Of a stretch of 64,000 nucleotides of DNA, positions 27,191-30,100 are shown piece by piece. A program made the translations under genes and the position numbers. Numbering within the stretch: position 1 is the stretch's first letter; every line of letters begins with the position of its first letter. The notes beneath the pieces are model-generated. The model did not search any database, was not told the DNA's origin, and worked only from the letters and a program-made list of their open reading frames with translations. Where the stretch lies: assembly GCA_964035545.1 (NCBI GenBank), contig OZ037765.1, positions 24,120,004-24,184,003 of the forward strand. The letters run 5' to 3'. Source of the stretch: Bugula neritina. Its lineage: Eukaryota; Bryozoa; Gymnolaemata; Cheilostomatida; Bugulidae.

Positions 27191-30100
27191 TTATTTCTTG
27201 TGTTGTGATGCATCTTTTCTAGGAGGCATACGCTCATTAGTTTTGTCTAAACTTCGGGCCTCCTCAAAGCTGGCGATCCTGTGATTTGGAGACACTCCAC
27301 TGACAGCTATAAAATATCAAAATGTTTTTTATTGTAATGTTACAACTACTGAAACAGGTGTTGCAAACATGCCCATAGTCAACCAAATTGTTGACTAGAA
27401 GTTCCACAACATACAAACTTCATACTAACTGGTAATTATTCATCTTTTAGGAATCACAACATAAATTAATTAAACAAATAAGCACGAGTTGAGGTGTAAT
27501 TTAAAAAATCTACTAGAGTCGATATGATACATATGCAACTTCAACCATTTACAGACGCATAAAATTAGCTTTTGCCAGTTAATGCAGCGGAATGCACTTC
27601 CTAAAAGGTTGAAGTAATCTATTCCTACGATGCCCAACATCTTGTAGTTGCACACATTGATAATAAACCACAAAGTAATATCTATTGTCCAATATCTACC
27701 ATTAGCCATAGTCTCTTTTCCTCCTGATAAAACACCAACTGGTAGCATGCCATTTGGAGTAAGACCTTTAAGCTGCAAGACTGTCTCACTTTCTTCCCTG
27801 TAAATAACGACGGGAGCCTATACTGATCTAATTTCCTAACACTGCATTGAAACGGCTAAGAGCATAGAATATATACCATATTTTAGAGAACACAATTAGT
27901 ATCTGAAAAAGAAGCAGGAACCTGAAAACATCTTGTATCAAGCAAATGCACCAATTAATATCTTTAGGTAGAGGGCTATAAATTAACCAAGTTTACTAAA
28001 TAATCTGTTGGATAATTTTTGTGAAAGACAAAAACAATATAGAAGTATAAATCACTTACTTAGCTGGAACCAACTAGAGTATGAGTGATAGTTATTGAAA
28101 TGTGAACAGATTGTAACAAAAAAGTAAGTAACAGAACAAGCAAATAGAGAAAGCAGATAGAAGCTGTTGATAAATGAACAAGGATAGAGAAAAGAGAGAT
28201 TGGTGACAGACATACAGTACCTGAGTACTGAATATACTTTGAGTAATTTGGATATTGCATTGATTTTACGCCTCATTTCTTCCCTTCTATTGTTCTTAGC
28301 AGTTCTAAGCAAAGCTGTAATGATTATGCAAAGAGAGTGAAAAGTCAAATGTAGCATAGACACAGATGCAAAGAGGTTGAAGAAATGTGGAGAGAGAAAA
28401 TAATACACAGTGGTGGTGGTGGTGGTGGGAAAGGGTACAGGCAGCGTTGGAGGATTGTTCAATATACCTGAGTACGGTGAACACCCTTGCCATTTTTCCA
28501 ATAGCTCTTATCTTATTTCGTATAACCTCTCTGCGGGCAGCCATTGCCGCTGCTGAAAGTATAATCGAAATATAATTATAGGAAGGAACACATTTTCACC
28601 AACACTGAAAGGGCGAACTAGGAAAACGATCACAAAAAGCATCAGAACCTCTGGCTCCTTACAAGCAATACACCAACACATTTCGACATAATGGTTGATC
28701 ACTAAGCAGGCATGACTACAGCCAATTCAGTGGGTTACTCAGGCCACGCTATAAGTTAGATTGAACATCTCAGCATGCAAAGTCCTAACACCAAATAACA
28801 ATATTCTACAAAGCAAAGCATTAGGCAGCAACACTACAACAACAAATATTACATGAGCCTTCAAATGTTGAGTGTTCAGATGTCATGGTTTGGAATTGGC
28901 CAATAGAAGTCAACAAAGCTGGTGAGTCTTGGTAAGAGCGCCATCACTACACACACCAACACTCACACACAATGAATAAGATCAATGACTTCACACCAAC
29001 CACATCAATACCAACAGCACTTACTACGGCTTGGAAGCCGCATGGAGGATGGTGAAGAATGACTAGAAAGGTCAGTGCTCGGCCATTTTTTTGAATCACT
29101 AGAATAGCCGTCAGAGTTGACAGCAGAAACTAATACAGCTGTTGATGCACCTACAATTGTCACATAGGAGACACATTGATACACCATGCTTAGTCTAGAG
29201 GCAAGCACAGTACACTATCAGTAGGTACACATGCATACACAGTTATGAGCAACGAGAGTCGTAATATGTAGATTACTCTAATGTGTAGGAGATAAGCAAA
29301 AAGGGTGATGCCTCACGTGTGCCATCAATGTCATAGCATGTTGAGTGCAGGAAGGGAGTTGTGGGCATCAACTAACTAACACAAACATATGGCAAGAAAA
29401 GGTCAAACACAGCTGTCACGAGAGTGGTTATAAGGCGATATAAAAACACATCTTTGTTATTCTCTACACTTATAAGCGCATGATTATGTGACCACCAAAT
29501 ACAGGTTCTGCCATGAAAAAGCAGAGGCCTGATTGTGGGTGTGGTCAAGTATCAGGATGAAAAAGTCAAAAGTTTACCTTTTTTACTAGGATCAGTTTCA
29601 ATGTCATCATCACCTAAAGTTAAATTCCCAGATTAGTGATATTATTAGTTGGCCATATCAGTAGAATAGTGTTAGTGAACAGTGAAAAGCTAGAACTACA
29701 ATTTAAGATTATGATTATACTCCACCTATTAGTGTTATCTTCCCTTTACAATTGACTCTGCATGCCCAAATGCATTGATTCAATGCAATGATAAAGGATT
29801 CCCTACGGCTTAGATATTATTTTACAATGCACGAGTGGAGTTATAGAGAAGATAACCCAAAACATTACGCCTTTATGGAAGTTACTAGAGATGATGTACA
29901 ACATTCAAGTCAGAAGTGAGTTTCAGCATGCCAACATTCCAATCACGTTTAGCTGTTTGCAGTGCACACAGAGAATCAACTGGCCAATCAAAACAAAGCC
30001 AGATGTACCTTCACTTGAGTTATGGGAATGGAGAACACCTTACATATACAATACCTGTCTTTCCTGAAACTTCAATTAAGAATTGATTACTCCTGTCTAG

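What the first reader, a model, noticed from the sequence alone, without database searches (positions are those of the whole stretch)
28221..28552. Mutually exclusive calmodulin-binding exons in calcineurin A
Two neighbouring exons of equal phase encode alternative versions of the calmodulin-binding helix, 13 of 23 aligned residues identical. Including both gives AGC TTT GCT TAG at the junction (premature stop), and skipping both shifts the frame, so only one can be used. Exon A is nearly identical to the vertebrate segment; exon B keeps the basic, amphipathic pattern but changes many side chains. One gene could thus make calcineurins with different calmodulin affinity or calcium thresholds. 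I know of no described calcineurin gene with a duplicated calmodulin-binding exon.
Basis: partly seen in the sequence, partly recalled or inferred. Interest (0 to 1): 0.88.

Follow-up and report, generated by a model that had tools for sequence, protein, structure and literature searches.

The report
Alternative calmodulin-binding exons in bryozoan calcineurin
In a moss animal, the one gene found for the calcium-controlled enzyme calcineurin carries two different, either-or versions of the exon for its calcium-sensor-binding helix, a part that hardly varies in the related proteins compared, so one gene could make two calcineurins tuned to calcium differently.

Summary
The window is chromosome 1 of the bryozoan Bugula neritina (inferred here). 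Its minus strand carries a complete calcineurin A gene. Exons 28552-28468 (A) and 28314-28221 (B) both encode the calmodulin-binding helix, in equal phase, 13 of 23 residues identical. Using both gives a stop; using neither shifts the frame.

Exon B looks like an old coding exon: 19 of 23 third codon positions differ (pS>1), but only 8 of 23 at each of positions 1 and 2. At eight positions its residues occur in 0 of 146 listed relatives, including changes at calmodulin anchor Phe410 (Tyr) and oxidation-sensitive Met406 (Leu). CU-rich tracts, denser than at other exons of the gene, flank it. Genome searches found no second calcineurin A gene. The nearest described case, C. elegans tax-6, swaps the linker after the helix, not the helix.

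Not shown: use of exon B in RNA, its presence in other bryozoans (two named Watersipora proteins and two unnamed close relatives all carry form A), or altered calmodulin binding. Verdict: probably real mutually exclusive exons; a new variant of a known kind.

The parts
27191..38265 (-). calcineurin A (PP2B catalytic subunit) coding region, 15 exons incl. alternatives; isoform A 507 aa, isoform B 510 aa
   Evidence: exon joining; Pfam Metallophos E 6.7e-41; residues 21-503 aligned to 1aui_A, E 1.5e-264
28468..28552 (-). exon 11A: canonical calmodulin-binding helix ([22 protein letters not shown])
   Evidence: same start after exon 9 in P0003 and after an exon-10-like insert in P0002
28221..28314 (-). 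exon 11B: divergent alternative calmodulin-binding helix ([22 protein letters not shown])
28315..28467 (-). 153-nt intron between 11A and 11B, CU-rich
   Evidence: CTCT/TCTC 5.88 per 100 nt, 3.07 in the intron after 11B, 0.21-1.87 in the other 12 introns
28071..28220 (-). CU-rich tract after the donor of exon 11B
   Evidence: 9 CTCT/TCTC in 150 nt; the downstream flanks of the 13 exons other than 11A and 11B hold 0-4
27700..27797 (-). exon 12: shared segment after the helix ([20 protein letters not shown]...)
   Evidence: one match in the assembly in each
27191..27306 (-). exon 13: autoinhibitory domain and stop codon
   Evidence: domain name recalled and from PMC12503234
30302..30382 (-). exon 9: end of the calcineurin B-binding region and start of linker 1
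   Evidence: region names recalled and from PMC12503234
29578..29613 (-). exon 10: 36-nt frame-neutral cassette in linker 1
   Evidence: a nine-residue insert at this place in P0002, none in P0003
29025..29150 (-). exon 10b: 126-nt frame-neutral, Ser-rich possible cassette in linker 1
   Evidence: TGCATG hexamers at 29235 and 28779 on either side

Best explanation
Exons 11A and 11B are mutually exclusive exons of the one calcineurin A gene found in the Bugula neritina assembly. They arose by an old exon duplication. Form A makes the standard calmodulin-activated enzyme. Form B makes an enzyme whose helix keeps the anchor Ile400, Ile403, Val409 and the basic charge, but has Tyr for anchor Phe410, Leu for Met406, Ser for Gly404, Leu for Ala407 and Glu for Val395. 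Inferred steps: a CU-binding splicing factor of PTB type acts on the tracts around exon B and sets the choice by cell type or stage; wrong double inclusion is removed by nonsense-mediated decay; form B binds calmodulin with changed affinity and so changes the calcium threshold, and lacks the methionine whose oxidation weakens binding.
For: Shown: gene structure, phases, splice dinucleotides, stop on double inclusion. Shown: coding constraint; differences at codon positions 1, 2, 3 are 8, 8, 19 of 23, Fisher P 2.6e-4, pS 1.07, pN 0.34. In a neutral simulation (40,000 runs per branch length) a copy evolved to the divergence of positions 1-2 (t 0.47) stays open, spliceable and as similar as observed in 0.3% of runs, at t 1.0 in none. 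Exon B residues at 8 positions occur in 0 of 146 listed calcineurins. Both 150-nt flanks of B hold 9 CTCT/TCTC; apart from the flank after 11A, which is the shared intron, no other exon flank exceeds 5; a count of 9 is reached at 0.19% of window positions. Only one locus with the helix was found in the genome, and only here do matches to P0005 reach 69% identity or more. Ile400 and Phe410 as calmodulin anchors, and the Met406 oxidation effect: PMC2671406 passages.
Against: No RNA evidence for exon B. A protein search with exon B alone gave 4 candidates and none at E 10 or better; a wider search with isoform B gave 1045 hits, and each of the 120 listed carries the A form, among them P0003 and P0005 of Watersipora subatra and the unnamed closest relatives P0001 and P0002. 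The acceptor of B is at the 81st percentile of intronic AG sites, that of A at the 94th. Amphipathicity of B is weaker. At short branch lengths the simulation does not reject neutrality (t 0.1, 0.2, 0.3: 50%, 21%, 6% pass), so recent retirement of a once-used exon is not excluded. The CU motif was chosen after seeing the sequence.
Confidence: 0.77

Rival explanations
1. Exon B is a once-used alternative exon that was retired recently: it still looks intact but is no longer spliced in.
For: No transcript or protein with exon B was seen; its acceptor scores lower than that of A.
Against: Open frame over the exon, both splice sites and the end phase are intact; CU-rich flanks suggest regulation still in place.
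Confidence: 0.12
2. The pair works as an on/off switch: including both exons ends the protein just after helix A (VLSFA-stop), either destroying the mRNA by nonsense-mediated decay or making a truncated, always-active calcineurin; skipping both gives an enzyme without calmodulin-binding helix and autoinhibitory domain.
For: The stop on double inclusion lies in exon B 84 nt before its end; the frame on double skipping ends in the last exon. C. elegans truncation after the calmodulin-binding domain is described as deregulated and overactive (PMC12503234, passages).
Against: A switch exon needs no coding constraint, yet B is kept at first and second codon positions relative to A.
Confidence: 0.08
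3. Chance or annotation artefact: exon B is random intronic sequence.
For: None found.
Against: Best unrelated match to helix A in the window is 8 of 22 against 12 of 22 for B, out of 127,870 stretches; splice sites and phase fit; divergent third positions with kept first and second positions.
Confidence: 0.03

Closest known systems
C. elegans tax-6 (calcineurin A) exons 13a/13bc (PMC12503234; abstract, outline and passages seen)
   Same: Calcineurin A gene, homologous mutually exclusive exons in the regulatory region; single CnA gene in the genome; tissue-specific choice, and exon-specific mutants with different phenotypes.
   Different: The worm exons encode linker region 2 after the calmodulin-binding domain; here the helix itself is swapped and the segment after it (exon 12) gave a single match in the genome.
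Human PPP3CA alternative exons 10 and 13, conserved in the paralogues (same paper, passages)
   Same: Alternative splicing next to the calmodulin-binding domain; bryozoan exon 10 sits in linker 1, which human exon 10 lengthens.
   Different: Cassette inclusion or skipping in the linkers; the passages name no change of the helix.
Plasma membrane Ca2+-ATPase splice site C (PMC12693652, passages)
   Same: Splicing inside a calmodulin-binding domain gives isoforms with different regulation.
   Different: Different protein. From recall, site C works by exon insertion that changes the end of the domain, not by a duplicated helix exon.

Membership tests
Calcineurin A (PP2B catalytic subunit) | Calcineurin-like metallophosphatase domain | tested here: met
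   PF00149 E 6.7e-41; alignment to CnA structures
Calcineurin A (PP2B catalytic subunit) | CnB-binding helix, calmodulin-binding helix, segment after it and C-terminal autoinhibitory domain in order | tested here: met
   residues 21-503 of isoform A align with 12-490 of 1aui_A; helix alignments. Domain names are recalled or from PMC12503234.
Calcineurin A (PP2B catalytic subunit) | Ca2+/calmodulin binding by isoform B | not testable with these tools
   Ile400, Ile403, Val409 kept; Phe410 to Tyr
Mutually exclusive exons | Neighbouring homologous exons of equal entry and exit phase | tested here: met
Mutually exclusive exons | Only one can be used for a full-length product | tested here: met
   both: stop in exon B; neither: frameshift
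Mutually exclusive exons | Both copies under coding constraint | tested here: met
   codon positions 8, 8, 19 of 23; pN 0.34, pS above 1; shown for the history of the pair, not for the most recent past
Mutually exclusive exons | Enforcement by short intron (steric) or competing RNA pairing | tested here: inconclusive
   153-nt A-B intron is longer than the shortest intron of the gene, 110 nt; intron duplexes against 100 shuffles each: 96, 58 and 2 of 100 shuffles reach the observed energy for the three pairs
Mutually exclusive exons | Transcripts with A alone and with B alone | not testable with these tools
   no RNA reads on hand; the 146 proteins listed carry form A only
tax-6-type linker 2 exon pair | Alternative exons encode linker 2 after the helix | tested here: not met
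   exon 12 gives one match in the genome in each; counts there are lower bounds by the tool's own note

The most novel reading that the evidence does not exclude
A bryozoan with one calcineurin A gene makes two calcineurins with different calmodulin-binding helices by exon choice: one standard, one with a calcium threshold and redox response (Met406 replaced by Leu) that the 146 relatives examined would not share, a helix swap that would take the place of gene duplication, such as in Watersipora with its two CnA genes.
Probability: 0.4. Interest if true: 0.75.

Novelty: new variant of a known kind. Interest (0 to 1): 0.62.

Why it matters
The calmodulin-binding helix of calcineurin hardly changes: in the 146 listed relatives 12 of its 23 positions never vary. 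A natural second version, apparently kept under selection beside the standard one, is a ready-made test of which residues set the calcium threshold of calcineurin, and of whether the oxidation-sensitive methionine can be given up. It would also add the helix itself to the sites where splicing varies calcineurin; the sites named in PMC12503234 (passages) are mostly the ends and the linkers, plus one variant (CnA-alpha 16K) that loses the catalytic and calmodulin-binding domains by skipping nine exons.

Tried and rejected
Related loci: scans of viral contigs and genome contigs for calcineurin A found none, so no bryozoan DNA other than this assembly could be examined. A search of the protein database with exon B alone gave 4 candidates and no hit; two wider searches listed 120 of 4096 and 120 of 1045 hits, 146 distinct proteins in all, which are the most similar ones, so rarer helix variants further down were not seen. 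P0003 is named isoform X2 of Watersipora subatra; an isoform X1 was not in the lists and its content is unknown. Records of the window's own species may be absent from these collections.

Genome searches have limits: made with the B helix, did not report exon A, made with an A helix, did not report exon B, so a divergent helix elsewhere could have been missed. Of 43 matches to P0005, 10 lie in this gene (55-91% identity, nine of them 69% or more); the other 33 have 28-59% identity and were not examined one by one.

RNA pairing between the introns around A and B was looked at as a mechanism and set aside: one of three pairs is stronger than most shuffles (2 of 100 reach it), the other two are not (96 and 58 of 100), and there is no comparative support. 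Steric exclusion by a short intron was set aside because the A-B intron (153 nt) exceeds the 110-nt intron of the same gene; the usual steric limit of about 50-60 nt is recalled. The CU and TGCATG motifs were picked after the fact from a handful of patterns. Splice-site scores rest on nine introns only. Matches of the helix region to TAL effectors in the structure library were set aside as repeat artefacts without further test. Statements on absence in print rest on listings of searches in an open-access library only. The search by assembly size found nothing; the species came. No structure was predicted.

Full report
What was checked. The window is eukaryotic. Its assembly (G000) has 215,847,546 bases in 295 contigs, and the window is C1:24120004-24184003. 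C1 is 35,640,107 bases, C4 24,795,343, C6 16,049,455, and contig C295 is a 15,248-base mitochondrial genome. The published Bugula neritina assembly tzBugNeri2.1 has 216.00 Mb in 320 scaffolds, chromosomes 1, 4 and 6 of 35.64, 24.8 and 16.05 Mb and a 15.25-kb mitochondrion (PMC11480708, passages). The order of protein genes that I read by eye from the translations of C295 (nad6, cox1, atp6, nad3, nad2, cox2, cob, nad4L, nad4, nad5, nad1) agrees with the part of the gene table of B. neritina that I saw (PMC2678162, passages), except that I did not look for atp8. I take the species as B. neritina, a cheilostome bryozoan; the number of contigs differs (295 against 320 scaffolds).

The gene. On the minus strand, 38265 to 27191, 15 exons including alternatives join to a calcineurin A of 507 residues (isoform A) or 510 (isoform B). 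All 14 introns are GT-AG. The protein has the phosphatase domain and aligns along its length with calcineurin A of known structure. Isoform A is identical at 459 of 496 aligned residues to P0002, an unnamed protein from environmental data, 451 of 490 to P0003 of the bryozoan Watersipora subatra, and 378 of 492 to P0005, a second calcineurin A of the same species. In the Bugula assembly 43 matches to P0005 were scored: 10 lie in this gene (55-91% identity, nine of them 69% or more), the other 33 elsewhere with 28-59% identity; I take the latter as other phosphatases and co-biont contigs but did not examine them. Two searches for the helix and the segment after it matched only this locus; as each reported only its own helix version, a divergent helix elsewhere could be missed.

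The exon pair. Exon 11A (28552-28468) and exon 11B (28314-28221) enter in phase 1 and leave in phase 2. Joined singly to the neighbours they give full-length proteins; joined together they give VLSFA and a TAG in exon B, 84 nt before its end; if both are skipped, the frame shifts and ends in the last exon. Exon A fits the predicted protein P0003, where the end of exon 9 is followed directly by the same helix start, and P0002, which has a nine-residue insert at the place of exon 10.

Is exon B a real coding exon? Over 23 codons the two exons differ at 8, 8 and 19 first, second and third positions. Positions 1-2 against 3: Fisher P 2.6e-4. By Nei-Gojobori pS is 1.07 (saturated) and pN 0.34. If B had drifted freely from an A-like start to the divergence seen at positions 1-2 (t 0.47), an open frame, both splice dinucleotides and the observed similarity together remain in 0.3% of 40,000 runs; at t 0.7 in 0.0075%; at t 1.0 and 1.5 in none; but at t 0.1, 0.2 and 0.3 in 50%, 21% and 6%. 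Since silent sites are saturated, such short times do not fit the whole history, yet a recent loss of use cannot be excluded this way. Indels were not modelled. The resemblance is not chance: 12 of 22 against a best of 8 of 22 among the other 127,868 stretches of the window. The 11 bases over the donor, GTACTCAGGTA, are identical in both.

What changes in the helix. In human numbering (the register is recalled and fits the peptide 395-411 given in PMC2671406), A to B: Val395Glu, Ile396Met, Asn398Arg, Arg401Asn, Gly404Ser, Met406Leu, Ala407Leu, Arg408Lys, Phe410Tyr, Thr411Ser. Kept, among others: Ile400, Ile403, Val409, Lys399, Lys405, Leu413. In 146 calcineurins, the union of the best 120 of 4096 hits with isoform A and the best 120 of 1045 hits with isoform B, 12 of 23 positions never vary; the B residues at 395, 396, 398, 401, 404, 406, 407 and 410 are found in none; Lys408 is found in 5 and Ser411 in 93. 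None of the 146 shows a second stretch with 10 or more identities to helix A, and none is closer to B than to A. These lists hold the most similar proteins, so the count says what is usual, not what is impossible. In the crystal structure of calmodulin with the calcineurin peptide the anchors are Ile400 and Phe410, and oxidation of Met406 is reported to lower affinity (PMC2671406, passages). B keeps the first anchor, adds a hydroxyl to the second and removes the methionine at 406. Net charge is +7 in A and +6 in B; the hydrophobic moment falls from 0.73 to 0.53. I infer that B still binds calmodulin, with different strength; this is untested.

Signs of regulation. CTCT/TCTC words per 100 nt are 5.88 in the intron before B and 3.07 in the intron after it, against 0.21-1.87 in the other 12 introns. 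Both 150-nt flanks of B hold 9; apart from the downstream flank of A, which is the same intron, no other exon flank in the gene exceeds 5. Over the window, both strands, 0.19% of positions reach 9, and 0.05% (minus strand, this site included) or none (plus strand) of placements have both flanks so rich. PTB-type factors that bind such words are known regulators of exclusive exons (recalled). The motif was chosen after seeing the sequence. The donor of B is at the 97th percentile of intronic GT sites and its acceptor at the 81st of AG sites, against 99.8 and 94 for A, with a model from nine introns.

Known relatives. C. elegans tax-6 has mutually exclusive exons 13a and 13bc in calcineurin A, with 13a prevailing in neurons and 13bc enriched in muscle, but they encode linker 2 after the calmodulin-binding domain (PMC12503234; abstract, outline and passages). 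Human exons 10 and 13 are linker cassettes (same paper). Of the text searches, searches listed that paper, and no listing showed a duplicated calmodulin-binding exon; of the other papers in those five listings I saw titles and abstract starts only, and the library holds open-access papers only.

Verdict. The arrangement is real and old, exon B is probably a used coding exon, and exclusivity for a full-length product follows from the frame. That both forms are made, and that they differ in calcium response, is inference. It is a new variant of a known kind (mutually exclusive exons in a calcium-signalling enzyme) at a site, the calcineurin helix itself, for which I found no precedent in these searches.

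Noticed in passing
window 29578-29613 and 29025-29150: Two frame-neutral cassette exons (36 and 126 nt) in linker 1 before the helix; an insert at this place in P0002 and none in P0003 suggest that exon 10 is alternative in bryozoans. With the A/B pair up to eight isoforms are possible.
   Followed up: partly
window 29235 and 28779 (minus strand): The only two TGCATG hexamers (Rbfox-type motif, recalled) found in the gene on its strand lie on either side of exon 10b.
   Followed up: no
G000:C6:11174072-11175412: A copy of the mitochondrial cox1 (match over the whole family profile, 9 TGA codons) in chromosome 6, probably a nuclear mitochondrial insertion.
   Followed up: no
G000 contigs C196, C65, C17: Further cox1 matches besides the bryozoan mitochondrial one (C196 and C65 with TGA codons and in two pieces each; C17 without stops), so the assembly probably holds co-biont contigs.
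   Followed up: no
P0003 and P0005 (Watersipora subatra): Watersipora has two calcineurin A proteins on contigs of different length where the Bugula assembly shows one gene.
   Followed up: partly
exon 11A and 11B, residue 411: The residue at human position 411 is Thr in form A and Ser in form B; Ser411 as a kinase site in vertebrates is recalled.
   Followed up: no
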